64,000 nucleotides of DNA from Acidobacteriota bacterium (lineage in GTDB: Bacteria > Acidobacteriota > Thermoanaerobaculia > Gp7-AA8): positions 186,001 to 250,000 of the forward strand of contig QHVT01000008.1 of assembly GCA_003223645.1 (NCBI GenBank). The letters are read 5' to 3'. The notes beneath the pieces were generated by a model. It was not told the origin of the DNA. It ran no database searches and saw only the letters and a program-made list of their open reading frames with translations. Made by a program: the position numbers and the translations under genes. Of this stretch, positions 50,538 to 60,991 are shown in pieces (the stretch's first letter is position 1; the number at the start of each line of letters is the position of its first letter).

Positions 50538-50917
50538 CGAAGCTCCTCGGCAAATTCGGCGAATGGTGGGCGGAATGGTTCTATCGCCTCCGCGGCTACA
50601 TCGTCGTCGCGAAGAACGCGCGCAGCACGTACGGTGAGATCGACCTCGTCCTCCGCCGCGGCCGCACCCTCGTCATCGCGGAAGTGAAGACGCGCCAGAG
50701 CCGCACCGCCGGCGAAGGCGTCGATGCCGTCACCCGACACAAACGCGACCGCCTCATCCGACTCGGCCACCGCTTCGCCGCAAACCATCCCGACACCCAA
50801 CTCCGCTACGACATCATCTCCAACTTCTGGACCGGCTGGCGGTTCGTCGTGTCCCACTACGCCGATGCGTTCCAACCGCTGGTCGACGCGCAGCGGCCGT
50901 GGGTATTGCGGGGGTAA
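50519..50917 (+). CDS. yraN: UPF0102 (YraN) endonuclease-like protein
   Basis: Archaeal Holliday-junction-resolvase-like fold: LGKFGEWWAEWFYRLRGYIVVAKNARSTYGEIDLV, quoted as GEWWAEWFYRLRGY and YGEIDLV, then VIAEVKTRQS with the PD-(D/E)xK acid and Lys, and a closing RYDIIS strand. About 132 aa from 50519 or two codons later. Next to mutL, compatible with a DNA-processing role, but function is unproven in the family. Confidence 0.88.
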   Translation: MRMKLPTKLLGKFGEWWAEWFYRLRGYIVVAKNARSTYGEIDLVLRRGRTLVIAEVKTRQSRTAGEGVDAVTRHKRDRLIRLGHRFAANHPDTQLRYDIISNFWTGWRFVVSHYADAFQPLVDAQRPWVLRG

Positions 50918-50924
50918 AGACCGA

Positions 50925-51186
50925 ACGCAGAACGCAGAACGCAGAGCTGAGAAAGGGTTCGTCGTTCTGCCATCTGCCATCTGCCATCTGCCTTCTGCCA
51001 TCTGCTTTCTGCGTTCCGCGTTCCGCCTTCTGCCTTCCGCCTTCTGCGTTCTGCGTTCTGCCTTCTGCCATCTGCCTTCTGCTTTCTGCCTTCTGCCATC
51101 TGCCATCTGCCTTCTGCCTTCTGCTTTCTGCTTTCTGCTTTCTGCTTTCTGCCTTCTGCCTTCTGCTTTCTGCTTTCTGCTTTCCA
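50925..51186. repeat. Expanded heptamer array, families E/F (CTTCTGC and CATCTGC variants)
   Basis: Short left arm of GAACGCAGAACGCAGAA (50923-50946) and a very long right arm (about 50965-51184) of some 31 heptamers such as TTCTGCC, CATCTGC, GTTCTGC and TTTCTGC. The largest such array in the window, between yraN and the metzincin gene. Confidence 0.92.
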
Positions 51187-51237
51187 AAGGTAGGGAAACC
51201 CTCTCTCCGCGTCACTCCTTTACGAGAGAACCTCGCG

Positions 51238-51927
51238 ATGCCCACCGAACCGGAGCCGATCCGTTGTTGTGTCGACGTCTTCGACGCGCCCCCGCCCACC
51301 CGGGTCGCGGAGCGGATGGCGCTCATGAAGGACGAGACGTGGGGGTCGGGATTCAAGTTGCGGGTGCGGTTTCTGGAGGGCGAGAAGGCCGTTCAGGACA
51401 AGGTCAAAAAGGTTGCGCTGCAGTGGATGGACCATGCGAACATCAACATGGTGTTCGTGAAAGACGGCGACGCGGAAGTACGGGTCGCATTCCGGCCCGG
51501 CGGGTCTTGGTCAGAGGTGGGGAAGCGCTCCAAAAAGATCGAGCAGGCGAAGCCGTCGATGAATTTCGGGTGGCTCACTCCCGTCACCGCCGATGACGAG
51601 TATCAGCGCGTGGTGCTGCACGAGTTCGGACATGCGCTCGGATGCATTCACGAACATCAGCATCCCGCCGGCGGGATCCACTGGAACAAGCAGAAGGTGT
51701 ACGACTACTACAAGCGCACGAACGGGTGGGACCCGCCGCGCGTCGACACCAACATCTTTCAGGCGTATTCGGCGGATCTCATCAAAGGAACCGGCCAGGC
51801 CGATCCGAAGTCGATCATGATGTATCCGATTCCCGCGGCGTTGACCGAAGACGGATTCACCGTCGGATGGAATCGCGAGCTGTCGCTGACGGACAAGAAG
51901 TTCATCAAGACTCTCTACCCCTTCTGA
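51238..51927 (+). CDS. Metzincin-type zinc metalloprotease, apparently cytosolic, 229 aa
   Basis: The zinc motif HEFGHALGCIHE (His128, Glu129, His132, His138) and Met-turn SIMMYPI (192-198) define a metzincin of the astacin/serralysin (M12/M10) kind. A possible third feature is the QHPAGGIHWN stretch. No signal peptide precedes the start at 51238 (MPTEPEPIRCCVDVFD), unusual for this mainly secreted class. First gene of a cluster with a caspase-like protease 12 bp downstream, so a joint proteolytic role is inferred. Substrate unknown. Confidence 0.82.
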   Translation: MPTEPEPIRCCVDVFDAPPPTRVAERMALMKDETWGSGFKLRVRFLEGEKAVQDKVKKVALQWMDHANINMVFVKDGDAEVRVAFRPGGSWSEVGKRSKKIEQAKPSMNFGWLTPVTADDEYQRVVLHEFGHALGCIHEHQHPAGGIHWNKQKVYDYYKRTNGWDPPRVDTNIFQAYSADLIKGTGQADPKSIMMYPIPAALTEDGFTVGWNRELSLTDKKFIKTLYPF

Positions 51928-51939
51928 GGAGCGGCGTGA

Positions 51940-53001
51940 ATGGGCGCGAAGGATTACGCGATCGTCGTCGGGATCAGCAAGTACCCCGCCCTCGGCGATC
52001 TCGTCGGGCCGGAAGCCGACGCGCGCGACTTTCATGCGTGGCTCATCGATCCGCAGGGCGGCGCCGTGCCGGAGGCGAACGTCACGCTGCTGCTTTCTTC
52101 CAACTACCCCGTCGCGGCGCAGCTGAAGGCGAAGCCGCAGGTCGCGGACATCGAAGCGGTGTTCGACGACTTCTACGTGAAGGGACGCGAGGAGTCGGTC
52201 GTCGGCGATCGCCTGTATCTCTACTTCGCCGGTCACGGCTTCGCGCCTTCGCTCGAAGATGCCGCGCTGCTCATGGCCAACGCCGCGCGCGGGATGACCG
52301 GCTATCACATCCCCGGACGCAAGTACGCGAACTGGTTCCGGCAGGCCGCGTTCTTCAAGGAAGTCGTGCTCATCATGGACTGCTGCCGCGAGAACTATCA
52401 GCTCAGCGCCGTCCGCAACGTTCCGTACGAGCAGTTGAACGGCGATCCGCCGGCGACACCGTTCTTCGCGTTCGCAACGCAGTGGTCGCGCGCGGCGCGC
52501 GAGGGACCGTGGGGCGACGGCGGCGCGATGCGCGGCCTGTTCACGCTCGCGCTGCTGGCCGGACTGCGCGGCGGCGCGGCGCGCGACGCGAACGGACAAA
52601 TCGCCGGCGACGCGCTGGAGAGCTTCGTCTTCAACTTCGTGCGCAAGAGATTCACCGAAGGAGGCGATCAGGAAGAGCATCCCGATCCGGAATTCTCCTA
52701 CGACAAGATGAAGCCGCTCGTGTTCGGCGCGCCGGCCGCGGCTCCAGGCGCAGCCGTGCCGCTGGCGGCGGCCGACGCGTACATCGTGCGCATCGCCATC
52801 CAGAATGGCGATGCGGGAAAGAAGTTAACACTGTCAACCAACGGCAGGCCGGACATCGCGCCGGCGGTGCAGCAGCCGGACAAGTGGGAGTGGCATCTCG
52901 ACATGGCAGGCTTGTACAAAGTGACGCGCAGCGACGGGAAGTCGAAATTGTTCGAAGTGATCGGCGAGAAGAAGGAAGCGATCGATGTCAGCTTCGACTG
53001 A
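51940..53001 (+). CDS. Caspase-like cysteine peptidase, 353 aa
   Basis: Caspase/metacaspase fold (C14): strand AIVVGISKYPALGDL, then the catalytic dyad His99 in YFAGHGFAP and Cys149 in IMDCCREN. After about residue 240 a Pro/Ala-rich linker leads into a C-terminal beta-rich domain (IVRIAIQNGDAGKKLTL, DMAGLYKVTRS) that may bind a partner. No signal peptide. The next gene overlaps by 17 bp, so the two are co-translated and likely partners. Bacterial caspases often act in suicidal or signalling proteolysis; here the trigger is unknown. Confidence 0.85.
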   Translation: MGAKDYAIVVGISKYPALGDLVGPEADARDFHAWLIDPQGGAVPEANVTLLLSSNYPVAAQLKAKPQVADIEAVFDDFYVKGREESVVGDRLYLYFAGHGFAPSLEDAALLMANAARGMTGYHIPGRKYANWFRQAAFFKEVVLIMDCCRENYQLSAVRNVPYEQLNGDPPATPFFAFATQWSRAAREGPWGDGGAMRGLFTLALLAGLRGGAARDANGQIAGDALESFVFNFVRKRFTEGGDQEEHPDPEFSYDKMKPLVFGAPAAAPGAAVPLAAADAYIVRIAIQNGDAGKKLTLSTNGRPDIAPAVQQPDKWEWHLDMAGLYKVTRSDGKSKLFEVIGEKKEAIDVSFD

Positions 53002-54364
53002 GCAAACCATCACCGTCAACGCGCCGCGCGACGTCGAGACGATCATCATCGATCACGCGTTCAATCTCGTGCATCACGGCGTCGGCAGCTTCACGCATGC
53101 GCTCGCGCCGGGCCTGTACAAATTCAAATACCGCCGCGGACTTGCGATTCACGAGACGCTCGAGGAGATCGGCGACGCGCCGCGCACGATCGACGCGCCG
53201 GAGCTCGAGTTCAGCTCCTCCGTTCCTCTCAGCAGCACGCGCGGCGCCGAGGCGAAACATCTCGATGCGGCGCGAAAACTCAGTAACGAGACGCACGTCA
53301 GCGTCGGCTCCGGCAGCCGCATTTTCGCGTTCGCGCGGTGGCTCGCCGAAGACGCGCAGCACAGCCACGACATCGCGACGCGCGTGACGCTGCACAAGCT
53401 CGACGGCACGCTGCTCGTCGACCTCGAGCAGCACGCCGTCGTCGACGACCGGAACGCCACAACCTGCGCCGGCTGCAGCATCGAGCTCGATCCCGGCGCG
53501 TACCGCTTCCGCCTCACGCGCAGCGACGAGCCGCTCGAGCAGATCGTCGTCGCCTCTCCGGGGTGGCAAACGCTGGTCTTCCTGCTGCACGAGCCGTCGC
53601 CCGCGGGAGAAGTGCCGCCCGCTCCGCTCGCATCGGCGTCGATCCTGATGTCGCGCGGCGGCTTCGATCCCGAGAGCGAGATGCTCCGCATGGCCGACGC
53701 CGCGCGCATCGCGCTGCAGGAAAAGCGGACGACGATGCCGCGCGAGCTGCTCTCCGAATTGCTCGACGACAACTTCGCGAATCCGATGCTCGGCATCTAC
53801 GGAGGCTGCGCGCTCGCAACGCAGTCTCCCGACGCACTGCCGCGCGTGTTGTTCGCGCTCGATCGTCTCGTGCCGGGACATCCCGACGTCAACGCGCTCC
53901 ATCTTGCGGTCGGCGAGTCGAACGTCGTCGTGGACGTCCCGCCGATGCTGCGCGCGAGCTGGACCAGCGTCGTCAAAGCATCGGTCGACGGGCGCGCGTT
54001 CATGAATCCGGAATCGCTCGCCGCGCGGATGCCGGCCGCCCTCCTCGAAGGAACGCCGTGGCTGATCTGGTCGCCGAACGCGGTGCTGGACGATGACGAC
54101 GTCGTCGTGCGCGACGTTTCGAACGATCTGAGCGAGCTCGAATCCTGCGTCGGCAACTTCACCGACGGACCGCCCGTCGAGCTCTCCGGCGCGGAGGAAG
54201 AGTTGTTCTCCTATCTCACGCGCCGCGCGCGCATCAACAAGAAGACGACGAAGAGTCAACCGCTGCGCCTCGACGAGAAGATTCTCGCGAACACATTCGG
54301 AACCACGGTTGCGAACGTGCAGTCGATCATCAGCGGACTCGCGACAAAGTTGCGCGGGAACTGA
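52985..54364 (+). CDS. Uncharacterised partner of the caspase-like protease, 459 aa
   Basis: I do not recognise this family. It overlaps the caspase gene by 17 bp. The first 180 residues are beta-rich with regularly spaced strands (NAPRDVETIIIDHAF, GLYKFKYRRG, RVTLHKLDGTLLVDLEQHAVV, GAYRFRLTRSD) that look like a repeat of the beta domain ending the caspase protein. The middle is alpha-helical (residues about 215-280), and the end (residues about 400-459) is a basic helical segment ILANTFGTTVANVQSIISGL that could be a winged-helix or interaction domain. No catalytic motif stands out. A regulator, scaffold or substrate of the caspase is the best guess. Confidence 0.72.
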   Translation: MSASTEQTITVNAPRDVETIIIDHAFNLVHHGVGSFTHALAPGLYKFKYRRGLAIHETLEEIGDAPRTIDAPELEFSSSVPLSSTRGAEAKHLDAARKLSNETHVSVGSGSRIFAFARWLAEDAQHSHDIATRVTLHKLDGTLLVDLEQHAVVDDRNATTCAGCSIELDPGAYRFRLTRSDEPLEQIVVASPGWQTLVFLLHEPSPAGEVPPAPLASASILMSRGGFDPESEMLRMADAARIALQEKRTTMPRELLSELLDDNFANPMLGIYGGCALATQSPDALPRVLFALDRLVPGHPDVNALHLAVGESNVVVDVPPMLRASWTSVVKASVDGRAFMNPESLAARMPAALLEGTPWLIWSPNAVLDDDDVVVRDVSNDLSELESCVGNFTDGPPVELSGAEEELFSYLTRRARINKKTTKSQPLRLDEKILANTFGTTVANVQSIISGLATKLRGN

Positions 54365-54375
54365 GCGCAACCCAC

Positions 54376-54430
54376 GACCCCTCACCCGGCGCTTCGCGCC
54401 GCCCTCTCCCCGCCAGCGGGGCGAGGGGCC
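54376..54430. repeat. Palindromic element, family N copy 1 (CCCTCACCCGGCGCTTCGCGCC)
   Basis: CCCCTCACCCGGCG, GCGCC, CTCTCCCCGCCAGCGGGGCGAG make a stem-loop. A reversed relative is at 54547-54601, with family D copy 4 between them. Confidence 0.8.
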
Positions 54431-54450
54431 ACTTACATGAGCGTCGACTA

Positions 54451-54540
54451 GCCCGGGCTCGGGTTGGCGAGCGAAGCGTCTGCATCAGCCCCCGCCCCGG
54501 GCGCGGGAGCGGGAGCGGGAGCGGGCGCGGGCACGGGAAG
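54451..54540. repeat. G/C-rich array, family D copy 4
   Basis: CCCGGGCTCGGG, then CCCCGCCCCGGGCGCGGGAG and many GGGAGC/GGGCGC units, and the word GCGAAGCG shared with other copies. Confidence 0.85.
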
Positions 54541-54546
54541 GCTCGT

Positions 54547-54601
54547 GATTTGTTGCCCTTCGCCCGCTTGCGGGGAGGTGGCCGAACGCCGGATGAGGGG
54601 C
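54547..54601. repeat. Palindromic element, family N copy 2 (reversed)
   Basis: CCTTCGCCCGCTTGCGGGGAGGTGG...GCCGGATGAGGGG mirrors the 54376 element in the opposite direction; both flank family D copy 4, giving a composite between the convergent 54364 and 54608 ends. Confidence 0.75.
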
Positions 54602-54607
54602 ATGCGT

Positions 54608-56398
54608 TTAAGCGAGCTTCACCGACGCCTCGATGCGATGCCGTCCCTGCGGCCATGCTTTCAGGAACGCGCGCCACATCACTTTCGTGTCGATCTGCGT
54701 CGCCATGTCGAACTCCACCGCTTCCTGGCGATGCCGGCGCGCTTCGTCGTGACGCGGTGAATCGGGATAGCGCTCGAACCATTCGTCCCACGCCGCGACT
54801 GTTCCGGTCTCGAAGGCCGCGTTGAAATCGCCGTCCGCGATCGCGAGCCGCGCGATCGCGCGCCGCGCTTCCGCTGCCGACGCTCCGTCCGGCTTCGCCT
54901 TCAAGTACGCGTGCAGCGCTTCCGAAGTGCCCGCGCCTTTCGCCGCCTCCCACATCCGCGCGTCGTCGCCCGCATCGAGCACACTCAGTCGCTGCTTCGC
55001 ATCCTTCGCGAGGATCCCCTCCGGATACGCGCGCAGAAATTCTTCGAGTTTCGCGCGATCGCCTTTGCGCGCCTGATCGAAGGCCTGCGTCTCGCGCAGA
55101 TGATCTTCCGCATGCGCGGAGAGCGAGCTGTCGGGAAACTCTTCGAGAAACGCCGCCCACGCCCCCGCGTTCTTCGCCGCGAGCGCGACGCTGTACGCCG
55201 TCTCTTCGCGAATCTTCGCCGCCCCGAGCCGTTCGTTCGCCGCCACGGCGTGACGATCGTGTCCCCATCGCTCGAGGTAATCGCTCCACGCCGCCTCGGT
55301 GTCCATCGCCGAGGCGGTGTCGAACGCGAGCCGCTCCTCGATCGCGCGCTCCGCTTCGTCCGCGTGATCGTGCGGATACTTCGTGCGGTAGTCGCGGAAG
55401 GCGTTGTACGTATCCGCCGCGAGTGCCGCCGCCCACGCGACTTCGGCGCGCCGCAAGTCCTCCGTCGGCTCGTTCGCCTTCGCCAGCGTCCCCTCGGTGC
55501 GCGAGAACGTCGTCGGCATGTGCGACACGAACGGCGCGAGCGCCTCGGCGAAGACGCGCGCGCTCGGATAGCGCTTCGCGCGATCCTTCTCCAGCGCGCG
55601 CAAGACGACCGGCTCGAGGCCGAGAGGAAAATCGAGCTCCGGATTCGCCTCGTCGAACGACGGCGGCGGCTGCGTGAGATGTTTGACGATGTAGCCGTTC
55701 GGCGTGCGCGCGCTGAATGGCGGCACGCCCGTGACCATTTCGAAAAGCACGACGCCGAGGGAGTAGAGATCCGTGCGGCCGTCGAGCTCTTCGCCTTCCG
55801 GCAACTCGCCGAGCTGCTCCGGCGACATGTACTTCGGATTGCCCATGATCACGTCCTGCGTGATCTCCGCCTTCGACTTCACGTCCTTCGCGACGCCGAG
55901 GTCGATGATTTTTACGAGCAGGTGATCGTCGTGATCGAACGCCAGCATGATGTTGTCGGCGGAGACGTCGCGATGCAGCAGACCGCGCCGATGCACGTGA
56001 TCGAGTCCCGCCAGGACTTGCATCGCGATCTCCGTCGCGAGCGCGAGCGGAAGACGTCCGTTCTCCAGCTGCCACTGCCGCACGGTCGTGCCGTCGATGA
56101 ACTCCGCGACCATATAGCTCGTGCCGTCGGGGAGGATCGAGAAGTCGTGCATCACCGCGACGTTCGGATGATGGATCTGCGTCGCGAGCTGCGCTTCGCG
56201 CAGGAAGCGCTGACGATACGTTTCGTCGGCGAGCAGTGCCGCGCGCATCGTCTTCACCGAACGGAACGCGTCGAGATGGATGTGCCGCGCTTTGTACACC
56301 TCCCCCATCCCGCCCACCCCGAGCAGGCCGACGATCTCGTACTTGCCATCGAGCACGGTGCCCCGCGCAAGGACCGACGTGCTTTCCGTCATCTGCAC
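54608..56398 (-). CDS. Ser/Thr protein kinase with C-terminal caspase-type repeats
   Basis: Hanks-type kinase domain (residues about 20-285): glycine loop LLGVGGMGEVYKA, Lys49 in SVKTM, catalytic loop HRDVSADN (142-149; the Lys of HRDLKP is replaced by Ser as in many bacterial kinases), metal motif DLGVAK (166) and SPEQ. No transmembrane helix. The C-terminal 300 residues hold about seven repeats of the form W/Y-x-x-F/Y-L-x-x-x-P-x-(S/G)...A...L, for example AWAAFLEEFPDSSLSAHA and AWDEWFERYPDSPRHDEA. Similar repeats follow caspase domains in other bacteria. 596 aa. Adjacent to, and convergent with, the protease genes. Confidence 0.88.
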   Translation of the reverse strand: MQMTESTSVLARGTVLDGKYEIVGLLGVGGMGEVYKARHIHLDAFRSVKTMRAALLADETYRQRFLREAQLATQIHHPNVAVMHDFSILPDGTSYMVAEFIDGTTVRQWQLENGRLPLALATEIAMQVLAGLDHVHRRGLLHRDVSADNIMLAFDHDDHLLVKIIDLGVAKDVKSKAEITQDVIMGNPKYMSPEQLGELPEGEELDGRTDLYSLGVVLFEMVTGVPPFSARTPNGYIVKHLTQPPPSFDEANPELDFPLGLEPVVLRALEKDRAKRYPSARVFAEALAPFVSHMPTTFSRTEGTLAKANEPTEDLRRAEVAWAAALAADTYNAFRDYRTKYPHDHADEAERAIEERLAFDTASAMDTEAAWSDYLERWGHDRHAVAANERLGAAKIREETAYSVALAAKNAGAWAAFLEEFPDSSLSAHAEDHLRETQAFDQARKGDRAKLEEFLRAYPEGILAKDAKQRLSVLDAGDDARMWEAAKGAGTSEALHAYLKAKPDGASAAEARRAIARLAIADGDFNAAFETGTVAAWDEWFERYPDSPRHDEARRHRQEAVEFDMATQIDTKVMWRAFLKAWPQGRHRIEASVKLA

Positions 56399-56408
56399 AA
56401 CTGTAGCG

Positions 56409-56792
56409 CTATCGCGCCTTCAACGAGCGTGCGATCAATCCGATGCCGCCCATCAACAGCACCAGCATGAGCAGCGTGTTGAAGAGACTCGTCGGGCGAA
56501 AGTAGATGTCGAGATGCGAGAGGATCCCGATGAACAGGATCACCGCGCCGGCCAGCGTGAGCACCCAGCCGACGATTGACTTGCCGTCGAAAAACAGAAA
56601 CGCGATGCCGACGATGAACGGCAGCAGCGACAGCCCGAACGCGTTGTAGCCCCACAGCTGCCAGTAGCCGCTCGTGACCGTGACCTGGTTCGTGAGCAGC
56701 CACCCGCCCGCCACCGCCATCGCAAATCCGATGAAGAACGTAGCGATCCCGCCCTCGGTGCCACCCGCGCCGCGAATTTCGTGCATGGCCAA
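56409..56792 (-). CDS. Small multi-span membrane protein, 127 aa
   Basis: Four hydrophobic helices: GIATFFIGFAMAVAGGWLLT, GLSLLPFIVGIAFLFF, GWVLTLAGAVILFIGILSHL, and LLMLVLLMGGIGLIA. The N-terminus is cytosolic-like. Unknown family. It lies upstream of the kinase on the same strand, 10 bp away, and is divergent from the 57034 gene, so it is likely co-transcribed with the kinase and could be its membrane partner (inference). Confidence 0.65.
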   Translation of the reverse strand: MAMHEIRGAGGTEGGIATFFIGFAMAVAGGWLLTNQVTVTSGYWQLWGYNAFGLSLLPFIVGIAFLFFDGKSIVGWVLTLAGAVILFIGILSHLDIYFRPTSLFNTLLMLVLLMGGIGLIARSLKAR

Positions 56793-56845
56793 AGGATAGT
56801 CGAAGGCGGCTGCGCGGATGCCAGTGCGCGGCTACGCCGATGGCC

Positions 56846-56920
56846 ACATCCGCCATCTGCCATCCGCCATCTGCCATCTGCCATCTGCCATCCGCAAAGC
56901 CGCCATCAGCGAAGCCGCCA
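56846..56920. repeat. Heptamer array, family F (CATCTGC/CATCCGC)
   Basis: About nine CATCTGC/CATCCGC units plus GCCGCCATC words in the intergenic gap before the nucleoside phosphorylase-fold gene. Same units as at 60808-60991 and 50965-51184. Only one orientation is present. Confidence 0.82.
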
Positions 56921-57033
56921 TCGCGCGCAGCGCACGTTTCTGCCTTCTTTGCCGCACACCACTTTTCAGGTACATTGCTCGTCGTCCCCAATCCGCCGCC
57001 ACAACTCACTTCGTGCCGTCAATGGAGAGCGCC

Positions 57034-58155
57034 ATGGAAAAGAATCGCTTTACCGATACCTATCGGACGCAGAACACCGGCAAGCCGCTCCCGTTGCCGA
57101 TCATCGATTGGACGCGCATCGGCTACACCGCGCCGACGGTGATCAGCGGCGAATACGACGGCTCGAGCGCGCCGCTGCCGAAGGCGGACGTCGTCGTCAT
57201 CACGTGGACGTCCGCCGAGTGGAACGCGTTCGACCACGTCTTCGTCAACAGCGGCTCGACGCGTTATCCCGACGATCGAGACTGGGAGCATGCGTGGCAT
57301 ACGTACAGCCGCAATGTCCCGTCGAGTATGACGTCCGACAATACGACCGCGCCTTTGTGGGGTCTCTATCGCGTCATCGAAATGAAGGCGTCGAAGAAGA
57401 AAACAATTCGCGTGCTGCTCTTCAAATGCGACACGCACCTGGCGCACCCGCCATACGCCAGCGGCCTCGAACAAATTACGAATCAGTTGATCGATGAGAC
57501 GGGCTGCTCCTGGATCTGGTCGATCGGTACCGCCGGCGGCGCGAAAGAATCCGAAAACCTCGGCGACGTCGTCATTACGAACGCCGGACACATTCAATTG
57601 AAGCTTTCGGAAAATCTCTCGTCGGGCCTCAACAATAAAACCGTCAAAGGAACGGCGTTCCCGTCGACGAAACTCTTCAACACCGTGCAAAGGCACTTCT
57701 TCTTCGACATGGCCACTGTCGTCACATGGCCGGTACTGAGCTCGATGCTGGAAGAGCTGCAGCAGCAGGATTCCGGCGCGAAGTCGCTGACACTTTCCGA
57801 TCTCGTCAATCCGCCGCTCGATCCGAAAAATCTCAAGCAATCGAAAATCCTTCCGAAAGACGGACAGCCGCTCCTGACCACCGACTTCTACTACATCGCC
57901 TCGGGGGCCGAAGCCGCGAAATGGTCGGTGCTGGAGATGGACGACGCGGTGATCGGCTACGTCGCCCAGCAGAAGAAAACGAGCTTCTGCTTCTCGCGCA
58001 ATATTTCTGATCCCATCGTGCCGGCCAAGGCCAAGGGCAAAACAATCGACAATTCGATTCGCGGAGATTGGTCGAGCGCGGTCTACACCCGCTTCGGCTT
58101 CTACACGAGCTTCAATGGAGCGCTCGCGACGTGGGCGGCGCTAACGGCGATGTAA
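57034..58155 (+). CDS. Nucleoside phosphorylase/nucleosidase-fold protein, 373 aa
   Basis: PNP/UDP-phosphorylase superfamily fold. KADVVVITWTSAEWNAF is the opening strand/helix of this fold, quoted as VVVITWTSAEW; SIGTAGGAKE with LGDVVITNAG is the IGTxGG/LGDV phosphate and base-binding core. Residue spacing matches conflict-system nucleosidases that are longer than housekeeping PNPs. No signal peptide. GGAG (57024-57027) supports the ATG at 57034 (an ATG at 57022 is also in frame). The next gene, a DNase II homologue, begins 14 bp after its stop. Might cleave free nucleosides, NAD+ or modified nucleotides; the substrate is unknown. Confidence 0.75.
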   Translation: MEKNRFTDTYRTQNTGKPLPLPIIDWTRIGYTAPTVISGEYDGSSAPLPKADVVVITWTSAEWNAFDHVFVNSGSTRYPDDRDWEHAWHTYSRNVPSSMTSDNTTAPLWGLYRVIEMKASKKKTIRVLLFKCDTHLAHPPYASGLEQITNQLIDETGCSWIWSIGTAGGAKESENLGDVVITNAGHIQLKLSENLSSGLNNKTVKGTAFPSTKLFNTVQRHFFFDMATVVTWPVLSSMLEELQQQDSGAKSLTLSDLVNPPLDPKNLKQSKILPKDGQPLLTTDFYYIASGAEAAKWSVLEMDDAVIGYVAQQKKTSFCFSRNISDPIVPAKAKGKTIDNSIRGDWSSAVYTRFGFYTSFNGALATWAALTAM

Positions 58156-58168
58156 GCAAGGAGAATTC

Positions 58169-59209
58169 ATGTCCCTCAGCGCAATCGGAGACAGCGGCAA
58201 AGCGGTCGACTGGTGGTTCATCTACAAAGTTCCGAAGGATGCGAAAGCGGCCGACAAGAGCGGCAAGCCGGCGACCGGCTTCGAGTACGCCTATTTCGAT
58301 TCCGACAGCAAAGCGCTGGCCGGCTCGAAACATCTGCTCAATGACACGACCAATGCACTGCGCCTGACGCTGCAGCAGCTTCCCGTCAGCGGTCATCCCA
58401 CCGTCGGCGTCGTTTATTACAACGACGAATATCCGTCGAGTTTGCACAAGACCAACAACGACGACAAGGGCCACTGCAAAGGCGTGCTCGCGTTCGACAC
58501 GGCAGCCAACAGCGCGATCTGGCTCCTGCACTCGACGCCACGCTATGCGACGCCCGGCTCCTTCGATTTTCCGTCGGACGAGCTCGATTATGGGCAGACG
58601 TTTCTCTGCATCACGCTGAAGGACGTCAAGACCGCCGAGGCGATTGCGACACAGATGCTGTCCCAGCAGGGACCGCAGGCGTACGGGCCCACACTGCCGA
58701 AAGCCGCGGGCAGCGTGTGGAGCGACCTCACTGCCGGAAAATTCACACTGTCGAAAACGCCGAGCGACATCACGTTCACGTCGAAGGCGGGCAACAAGTT
58801 CCGCAGCATCGCTAAGAGCCGCTTGTGGGGACAGGACCTCTGGAGCGACGAAGTCGGCGACGACCTCGGCGTGAATCTCGACGTCGAGTCGTGGCGCCGC
58901 GGAACGACTCCCTCGACGACCGACAGCAACAAGACAGACGACATCGTCGACGTCGTCGACGTCGATTTCGGTCCGCTGCAATTTCCCTATGCCTGGCCGG
59001 AGACGAAAGACCACGCCAAATGGGCGCAGTCGATCGAAACAACAGGAAAACCGGCCGCCGATTGGGTCTGCATCGCGGACATCAATCGCCAAACGTCACA
59101 GTCGAAGCGCGGCGGCGGCTCGATCTGCTTCCAGCACCCCGCATTGTGGAAATGCCTCGCACAGATCGATCAGGTCACGCCGCCGGAGTTGAAGAAGAAA
59201 ACGAAGTGA
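58169..59209 (+). CDS. DNase II-family nuclease lacking a signal peptide, 346 aa
   Basis: Clearly related to acid DNase II, the lysosomal enzyme of animals. The order of motifs is the same: GDSGKAVDWWFIYKVP near the N-terminus, VVYYNDEYP, GHCKGVLAFD with the first catalytic His102 and Lys104, YGQTFLCI, and C-terminal DHAKWA with His282 and Lys284, followed by CIADINRQTSQSKRGGGSIC. The two HxK motifs together form the phospholipase-D-like active site. Unlike animal enzymes there is no signal peptide: the family core begins at residue 8, so it is probably cytosolic. Downstream of the PNP-fold gene by 14 bp with AAGGAGAATTC upstream. Expected activity: metal-independent DNA cleavage. Confidence 0.85.
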   Translation: MSLSAIGDSGKAVDWWFIYKVPKDAKAADKSGKPATGFEYAYFDSDSKALAGSKHLLNDTTNALRLTLQQLPVSGHPTVGVVYYNDEYPSSLHKTNNDDKGHCKGVLAFDTAANSAIWLLHSTPRYATPGSFDFPSDELDYGQTFLCITLKDVKTAEAIATQMLSQQGPQAYGPTLPKAAGSVWSDLTAGKFTLSKTPSDITFTSKAGNKFRSIAKSRLWGQDLWSDEVGDDLGVNLDVESWRRGTTPSTTDSNKTDDIVDVVDVDFGPLQFPYAWPETKDHAKWAQSIETTGKPAADWVCIADINRQTSQSKRGGGSICFQHPALWKCLAQIDQVTPPELKKKTK

Positions 59210-60807: not shown

Positions 60808-60991
60808 TGGCGGATGGCGGATGGCGGATGGCGGATGGCGGAGAATACTGCAAGCTTGCCTCGCCATCTGCCATCCGCCATCCGCCATCTGCCTGACGGT
60901 ATGGGGCAGGTTTTCCAACCTGCCCCCCGGGAGGCAGGCTGGAAAGCCTGCCCCACACCGCCATCTGCCATCCGCCCTCTGCCATCCGTCA
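60808..60991. repeat. Nested element: family F heptamer arms around a family K palindrome
   Basis: GGCGGAT units (60808-60840), then CATCTGCCATCCGC units, then GGGGCAGGTTTTCCAACCTGCC...GGCAGGCTGGAAAGCCTGCC (60902-60958), then CATCTGCCATCCGCC units again. It fills the gap between the response regulator and kinase genes. Confidence 0.85.

What the first reader, a model, noticed from the sequence alone, without database searches (positions are those of the whole stretch)
51238..59209. Protease-kinase-nuclease cluster: metzincin, caspase-like protease, unknown partner, Ser/Thr kinase, nucleoside phosphorylase-fold protein, DNase II
Seen: two co-directional blocks, 51238-54364 (metzincin, caspase, overlapping partner) and 57034-59209 (PNP-fold protein and DNase II 14 bp apart), with a kinase and a small membrane gene between them on the other strand. 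None of the soluble products has a visible signal peptide. Known: bacterial caspases, PNP-fold nucleosidases and kinases recur in biological-conflict and programmed-death loci. Inference: the kinase may sense a trigger, the proteases may amplify it, and DNase II plus the PNP-fold protein may destroy DNA and nucleotides. I know of no described system with this combination.
Basis: partly seen in the sequence, partly recalled or inferred. Interest (0 to 1): 0.78.

Follow-up and report, generated by a model that had tools for sequence, protein, structure and literature searches.

The report
Caspase operon with swappable killer enzymes
Half of the reported cluster is a genuine, widely scattered three-gene unit (a caspase-like protease, a scaffold protein related to it, and an interchangeable destructive enzyme) that looks like an undescribed bacterial self-destruction or defence system; the other genes nearby are separate neighbours.

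Summary
Block 1 (metzincin 51238-51927, caspase 51940-53001, partner 52985-54364) is a conserved module. In 15 other loci (7 Acidobacteriota, 7 proteobacterial plasmids, 1 viral contig) the caspase is present in 15, the partner beside or fused to it in 14 (the 15th contig ends first), the window's PNP, DNase II and membrane protein in 0, a kinase in 2. The third enzyme is swapped: over 16 loci, metzincin 8, alpha/beta-hydrolase 6, subtilase 1, nuclease-trypsin 1; some partners carry a metzincin or a trypsin+nuclease as fusions. The window's partner hits nothing in Pfam, NCBIfam or PADLOC; its N-terminal domain is homologous to the caspase's tail domain. Reading: a caspase-adaptor core that unleashes an exchangeable hydrolase inside the cell, like Canu (CanABC) and the hydrolase-caspase pairs of Kaur et al. 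2020, but with a different effector and no recognised MoxR-vWA parts. Anatomy is well supported; activation and defence are inferred. Block 2 (PNP-fold 57034-58155, DNase II 58169-59209) is probably a second, separate pair, adjacent also on one Burkholderia plasmid.

The parts
51238..51927 (+). metzincin (astacin-like) protease, effector of the module; no visible leader; HExxHxxGxxH zinc site and Met-turn; N-terminal Cys
   Evidence: homologue directly before the caspase in L020, L022, L023, L030, L031, fused in L025 and L026
51940..53001 (+). caspase with His99-Cys149 dyad and a C-terminal beta-rich domain (about residues 268-353)
52985..54364 (+). partner/adaptor: two beta-rich domains (about 1-84 and 104-205), a helical part (about 230-355), a helical C-terminal end; overlaps the caspase gene by 17 bases
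57034..58155 (+). PNP/nucleosidase-fold protein (separate module 2)
58169..59209 (+). DNase II without visible leader, both HxK motifs (separate module 2)
54608..56398 (-). PknB-type Ser/Thr kinase; convergent neighbour, no evidence that it belongs to either module
56409..56792 (-). small membrane protein; neighbour of the kinase gene, no evidence of membership

Best explanation
Block 1 is a three-gene intracellular self-destruction (probably anti-phage or anti-plasmid) module. Its constant core is a caspase and a partner protein built partly from the same beta-domain as the caspase's own tail; the two form one complex. The third component is an interchangeable destructive hydrolase, here a metzincin protease without a visible secretion signal. 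A trigger sensed by the core activates the caspase, which cuts or otherwise releases the hydrolase; the hydrolase then damages the cell's own proteins (or lipids or nucleic acids, depending on the effector) and stops the invader with its host. Shown here: gene content, order, co-occurrence, domain homology, effector swapping and fusions. Inferred: complex formation, activation by cleavage, toxicity, defence role. The PNP-DNase II pair next door is probably a second, independent two-gene module, and the kinase and membrane gene are unrelated neighbours.
For: In 15 other loci the window's caspase matches 15, its partner 14, its metzincin 7, and the other four window proteins 2, 0, 0 and 0. Partner queries found 7 plasmid records (5, 6, union 7); the window's caspase at E<=1e-8 found exactly the same 7. 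A caspase-led scan of genomes gave 4 loci, 3 with the partner next door and 1 cut off at the contig end; a caspase-led scan of viral contigs gave 1 locus, with partner and hydrolase. Caspase and partner are one protein in L030 and L031. Distances on the caspase and partner trees of 14 loci correlate, r=0.863, 0 of 2000 permutations as high. Effector slot over 16 loci: metzincin 8, alpha/beta-hydrolase 6 (GHS[AT]G motif in 5 of 5 checked), subtilase 1, Endonuclease_NS+trypsin 1. Fusions: partner+metzincin (L025), phosphoesterase+metzincin (L026), partner+trypsin+PLD (L029), partner+trypsin+Endonuclease_NS (L032). Caspase tail versus partner N-domain: hhalign 96.7%, E 4e-10; four unrelated domain pairs under 2%. 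Patchy, mobile distribution: 5 of 396 Acidobacteriota genomes, the window's included and one false match dropped, 7 plasmids, and one cassette about 0.5 kb behind a phage-type integrase with YqaJ and RadC genes around. Precedents read in passages: Canu, where the CanA-CanB complex activates pro-nuclease CanC (PMC12799240), and caspase/hydrolase pairs (PMC7159879).
Against: No function was tested. No trigger or sensor domain was recognised in the partner; its model is poor (mean pLDDT 53). The N-terminal Cys that could keep the metzincin latent is in 8 of 8 module metzincins but also in at least 7 of 14 homologues outside the module (by eye), so it is not specific. No caspase cleavage site was identified. 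A partner query (L020's) found nothing in 50,697 phage records, and two further viral-contig scans found nothing. Both trees are weakly resolved (5 and 4 of 11 inner branches well supported), and the permutation test does not remove shared species history.
Confidence: 0.55

Rival explanations
1. All six genes form one programmed-death system: kinase senses, proteases amplify, DNase II and PNP destroy DNA and nucleotides.
For: They are neighbours in this genome; caspase, kinase and PNP domains occur in conflict systems (PMC7159879, PMC8195603, passages).
Against: Block 1 and block 2 occur apart in the other loci examined; kinase and membrane genes are on the other strand; kinase matches elsewhere are 2 of 15 and over the kinase domain only.
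Confidence: 0.04
2. The module is not for defence but a regulated proteolysis or antagonism system: the caspase processes the hydrolase, which acts on other cells or on the envelope after lysis or export.
For: Subtilase, metzincin, phosphoesterase and lipase-like enzymes are often secreted (general knowledge); a metzincin relative outside the module sits near two genes annotated as immunity proteins (L055).
Against: Module metzincins show no signal peptide by eye; nuclease effectors and the integrase-linked cassette fit intracellular use better. Secretion genes were not searched for systematically.
Confidence: 0.2
3. The partner is the sensor and the caspase itself is the executioner; the third gene is accessory, for example amplifying or cleaning up.
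For: Caspase and partner are the constant pair, the third gene varies; in L043 the genes before the caspase gave no clear enzyme match.
Against: All 15 loci that do not end within the module keep some hydrolase gene (in L043 a nuclease-trypsin behind the partner), and effector domains become fused to the partner.
Confidence: 0.18

Closest known systems
Canu (CanABC) caspase-nuclease defence system, PMC12799240 (passages read)
   Same: Three genes; a caspase whose best structural matches include MALT1 and which has an extra C-terminal domain; a second protein that travels with the caspase; a third, destructive enzyme.
   Different: The window has no MBL-fold nuclease; the third gene is a metzincin; the partner could not be compared with CanB because its sequence was not at hand.
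alpha/beta-hydrolase-caspase pairs of the MoxR-vWA (VMAP) ternary systems, Kaur et al. 2020, PMC7159879 (passages read)
   Same: A caspase and an alpha/beta-hydrolase encoded side by side; six of the 16 loci here have that pairing.
   Different: No vWA or MoxR domain was recognised among the neighbours scanned; a dedicated partner protein is constant, and a metzincin or other enzyme can replace the hydrolase.
Nuclease-trypsin pairs in Hachiman, AVAST, Lamassu and DRT systems (PMC12799240, passages read)
   Same: Trypsin-like protease next to or fused with a nuclease, as in L029, L032 and L043.
   Different: Here the pair is attached to a caspase-partner core, and the nucleases are PLD or Endonuclease_NS, not MBL-fold.
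DNase II and PNP/nucleosidase families (module 2)
   Same: Pfam DNase_II with two HxK motifs; Pfam PNP_UDP_1.
   Different: This DNase II has no visible leader; the two genes are neighbours, in Burkholderia with a long C-terminal extension on the PNP protein.

Membership tests
Caspase (Peptidase_C14) | caspase fold with His-Cys dyad | tested here: met
   PF00656 36.3 bits over cut-off 21.4; H99 and C149 invariant in 14 of 14; Foldseek hits MALT1, metacaspase, caspases; VIA-align Z 16.9, 3.5 A over 218 residues to MALT1
Canu (CanABC) | MALT1-like caspase with C-terminal Ig-like domain | tested here: inconclusive
   Caspase domain matches MALT1 caspase-Ig3 entries, but the VIA rows end at residue 270 or before, so the tail domain was not matched
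Canu (CanABC) | MBL-fold pro-nuclease as effector | tested here: not met
   No such Pfam domain in the seven proteins of the cluster
Canu (CanABC) | CanB subunit | not testable with these tools
   CanB sequence is not in the passages read
VMAP / MoxR-vWA ternary system | MoxR and vWA genes beside the effector genes | tested here: not met
   No such Pfam domain in 15 window proteins between 44.8 and 63.7 kb; at other loci eight neighbours and five had none, but not every neighbour was scanned
EACC1-associated caspase (NF047832) | score over NCBI cut-off 140 | tested here: not met
   48.4 bits for the window caspase; 64.8, 21.7 and 38.0 for three others
Metzincin / astacin-like | HExxHxxGxxH and Met-turn | tested here: met
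   HEFGHALGCIH and SIMMY; Pfam Astacin 26.4 bits over 22.5
DNase II | DNase_II domain with two HxK motifs | tested here: met
   262.4 bits; HCK at 102 and HAK at 282; that these are the catalytic motifs is recalled
PNP_UDP_1 superfamily | score over Pfam cut-off | tested here: met
   27.2 bits, cut-off 25.1, marginal
PD-T4-6 defence kinase | specific membership beyond a generic Ser/Thr kinase domain | tested here: inconclusive
   Many PADLOC kinase models match over the kinase domain; the general PknB model also matches
Any anti-phage system | protection against phage | not testable with these tools
   needs an experiment

The most novel reading that the evidence does not exclude
A previously undescribed family of bacterial suicide/defence operons: a caspase and an adaptor that shares its tail domain form an activation platform into which different killing enzymes are plugged, with a metzincin as a caspase-released executioner; a caspase-to-metzincin cascade of this kind was not in the papers listed by my searches.
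Probability: 0.4. Interest if true: 0.82.

Novelty: new variant of a known kind. Interest (0 to 1): 0.68.

Why it matters
It would show that the caspase-plus-effector logic reported for Canu is a general platform with swappable executioners: proteases, lipase-like enzymes, a phosphoesterase and nucleases. The window's partner has no entry in the libraries searched, so the family gives a new marker for finding such operons, and the fusions make the physical link between adaptor and effector directly testable. It also separates a real unit from accidental neighbours in the original finding.

Tried and rejected
Six-gene unit: rejected. Kinase as member: rejected for lack of linkage. Cysteine switch as a signature of caspase control: rejected as specific evidence, because at least 7 of 14 homologues outside the module have a comparable N-terminal Cys (judged by eye; two pairs among the 14 are near-identical). 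Partner in other proteins: two weak genome hits dropped as false, G361 (18.5 bits; it reads antisense to a 337-residue ORF) and G444 (20.1 bits in a 994-residue frame, not recovered by the better model). Partner fold: the model is poor (pLDDT 53); residues 3-77 gave tied beta-sandwich matches up to Z 8.6, which may mean only a common arrangement. No solved relative by sequence: caspase profile 0 hits at E<=0.01, partner profile only three at E 0.05-0.65. Known defence models: window partner and L020 partner none. Phage records: no match to L020's partner or to the window's DNase II. No RNA family; promoter and terminator scans at chance level. PNP-DNase II pairing was not seen at three Acidobacteriota PNP loci with wide flanks, nor at three other DNase II loci, two of which had only about 1.5 kb of flank. 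L056 (Bradyrhizobium, metzincin-caspase-trypsin) was not counted: its caspase matches only distantly (E 1e-6) and no partner was found. Caveats on counts: the 16 loci come from several searches made with the caspase or partner themselves, so effector proportions are not a census. In 147 class genomes the caspase model gave four strong matches (232-410 bits; three are rows of the model, the fourth is L023's genome) and nothing else above 69 bits, so this caspase branch is rare there. The literature search covers open-licence PMC papers only; three papers (PMC7159879, PMC8195603, PMC12799240) were read as passages, the rest seen as listings.
Full report
What is there. Block 1 is a tight, co-directional set: metzincin 51238-51927, caspase 51940-53001, partner 52985-54364. 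The metzincin ends 12 bases before the caspase, and caspase and partner overlap by 17 bases. Further on lie, on the other strand, a PknB-type kinase and a small membrane protein, then a PNP-fold gene and a DNase II gene 13 bases apart. The partner has no hit in Pfam, NCBIfam or PADLOC up to E=1. The genome also holds nine other caspase-domain hits; the window's caspase was not in that list although it passes the Pfam cut-off on its own, so the real number is at least ten.

Is it one cluster? No. The genome belongs to Acidobacteriota, class Thermoanaerobaculia, judging from record titles of contigs that match those of same-class genomes in length. Counts below include the window's own genome. 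In 148 genomes of the class, DNase II occurs in 2 and the partner in 3. In phylum samples the partner occurs in 5 of 396 genomes after dropping one false match, the PNP protein in 5 of 297, one of them weak, and DNase II in 3 of 297. Searching 15 other block-1 loci (7.6 to 21 kb each) with the seven window proteins at E<=1e-3 gave: caspase 15, partner 14, metzincin 7, kinase 2, membrane protein 0, PNP 0, DNase II 0. Of seven PNP or DNase II loci compared, none holds block 1, and only the Burkholderia one holds both PNP and DNase II.

Block 1 is a unit. The partner in the first two relatives (G008, G089) lies directly behind a caspase, and in G008 a metzincin lies directly before it. Regions around further hits gave metzincin-caspase-partner in L020, L022 and L026, metzincin-caspase up to the contig end in L023, caspase with a partner-metzincin fusion in L025, and alpha/beta-hydrolase-caspase-partner in L021 and L024; L022 and L021 are the G008 and G089 loci again. 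Plasmids added seven loci: L029, L030, L031, L032, L033, L043, L044. The caspase alone, searched in the plasmid collection, returned the same seven records and no others at E<=1e-8. A viral-contig scan with the caspase returned one locus, L066, again with hydrolase and partner. In all, 16 loci including the window; in the 15 that do not end within the module the partner is next to the caspase, fused with it in L030 and L031. Caspase and partner trees of 14 loci give correlated distances, r=0.863 with 0 of 2000 permutations as high; this does not exclude shared species history as the cause.

The third gene is exchangeable. Metzincin: window, L020, L022, L023, L030, L031, and as fusions L025 and L026 (8 of 16). 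Alpha/beta-hydrolase: L021, L024, L029, L032, L033, L066 (6 of 16), with a GHS[AT]G motif in the 5 checked. Subtilase: L044 (1). Endonuclease_NS plus trypsin: L043 (1). In these loci metzincin and this alpha/beta-hydrolase were not found together. Partners also carry fused effectors: trypsin plus PLD in L029 and trypsin plus Endonuclease_NS in L032; L026 fuses a PF04185 phosphoesterase to the metzincin. On both trees the four-state effector label changes at least five times (three is the least possible), though few inner branches are well supported (5 and 4 of 11). Variable effectors around a constant core are typical of conflict systems (PMC7159879, passages).

Domain anatomy. The caspase keeps His99 and Cys149 in 14 of 14 aligned sequences. 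Its model (mean pLDDT 72) matches MALT1, metacaspases and caspases (VIA-align Z 17.0, 3.7 A over 218 residues to metacaspase 4, and Z 16.9, 3.5 A over 218 to MALT1). Profile comparison shows that the caspase's C-terminal domain is homologous to the partner's N-terminal domain (96.7%, E 4e-10); that N-terminal domain is related to the partner's second domain (86.4%, E 5e-6), and the caspase tail to the second domain more weakly (57.4%); four comparisons between unrelated domains scored under 2%. The partner's remaining part is predicted helical, with conserved NPML...GHPDV...PPML.SW stretches and a helical C-terminal end. The partner model is too poor for fold claims.

Metzincins of the module show no signal peptide by eye, unlike relatives such as L053 and L057, which suggests action inside the cell. 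All eight have an N-terminal Cys that could act as a cysteine switch (idea recalled from matrix metalloproteases), but at least 7 of 14 metzincins outside the module have one too, so this is not evidence for caspase control.

Context. The core is rare and patchy (5 of 396 genomes), is on seven plasmids, and in L066 lies about 0.5 kb behind a phage-type integrase, among YqaJ, RadC, a recombination directionality factor and a DNA adenine methylase. Transposase genes lie within the fetched flanks of L029, L030, L043 and L044. This is the distribution of accessory, mobile, probably defensive cassettes, but it does not show defence. In the window itself the flanking genes scanned are ordinary: OmpA family, MutL, UPF0102, BON, a LytTR regulator with a histidine kinase, and an AraC-type regulator.

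Mechanism. The closest tested system is Canu: a MALT1-like caspase CanA with an Ig-like tail forms a complex with CanB and converts the pro-nuclease CanC into an active nuclease (PMC12799240, passages). Kaur et al. noted that caspases associated with VMAP components always have a neighbouring alpha/beta-hydrolase gene (PMC7159879, passages). By analogy I propose that the caspase-partner complex is activated by an unknown trigger and releases the hydrolase. The window differs from Canu by its effector (no MBL nuclease) and from VMAP systems by lacking MoxR and vWA domains among the proteins scanned.

Module 2. The window's PNP and DNase II each match one record among 72,556 plasmids at E<=1e-3, and it is the same one: Burkholderia pyrrocinia NZ_CP091309, DNase II (46%) followed 74 bases later by the PNP protein (42%) with a long C-terminal extension. 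DNase II there, in the window and in G084 shows no leader by eye, whereas two more distant Acidobacteriota DNase II proteins (G171, G370) have hydrophobic N-termini; all five keep at least two HxK motifs. So PNP-DNase II is probably a small module of its own, of unknown role, supported by only one other adjacent pair.

Literature. Searches for bacterial caspase with metalloprotease, astacin, antiphage and neighbourhood terms and for DNase II with nucleoside phosphorylase listed no paper whose title or abstract start describes this core or this pair; the library holds open-licence papers only and listings were capped at 10-15.

Noticed in passing
50912-51190, 56850-56900 and about 60814-60960: Arrays of a degenerate heptamer (CCATCTG/CCTTCTG type) between genes. 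A 22-base pattern with up to 2 mismatches occurs 472 times in this genome (244 forward, 228 reverse) and 0 times when read backwards as a control.
   Followed up: partly
L034, NZ_CP091309.1 282299-307297: Burkholderia pyrrocinia plasmid locus with DNase II and PNP genes followed by a metallophosphoesterase, a ferritin-like protein and RebB R-body genes, with a tyrosinase upstream.
   Followed up: no
L056, NZ_CP096257.1 71862-82461: Bradyrhizobium plasmid: metzincin, a distantly related caspase and a large trypsin-like protein side by side; possibly a parallel metzincin-caspase system without the partner.
   Followed up: partly
L062, NZ_CP020372.1 156202-166858: Thiodictyon plasmid: metzincin gene directly before a TIR-domain gene.
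   Followed up: no
L020 12641-13588 and L025 6177-6749: The gene after the partner in these two loci is weakly similar (27% identity, E about 1e-4); a possible fourth component.
   Followed up: no
56409-56792: The small membrane protein matches CyanoTRADDas_TM below the Pfam cut-off (15.9 against 24.3 bits).
   Followed up: no
L024 11741-14137: A Ser/Thr kinase with TPR repeats lies just upstream of, and co-directional with, the hydrolase-caspase-partner genes of G477.
   Followed up: no
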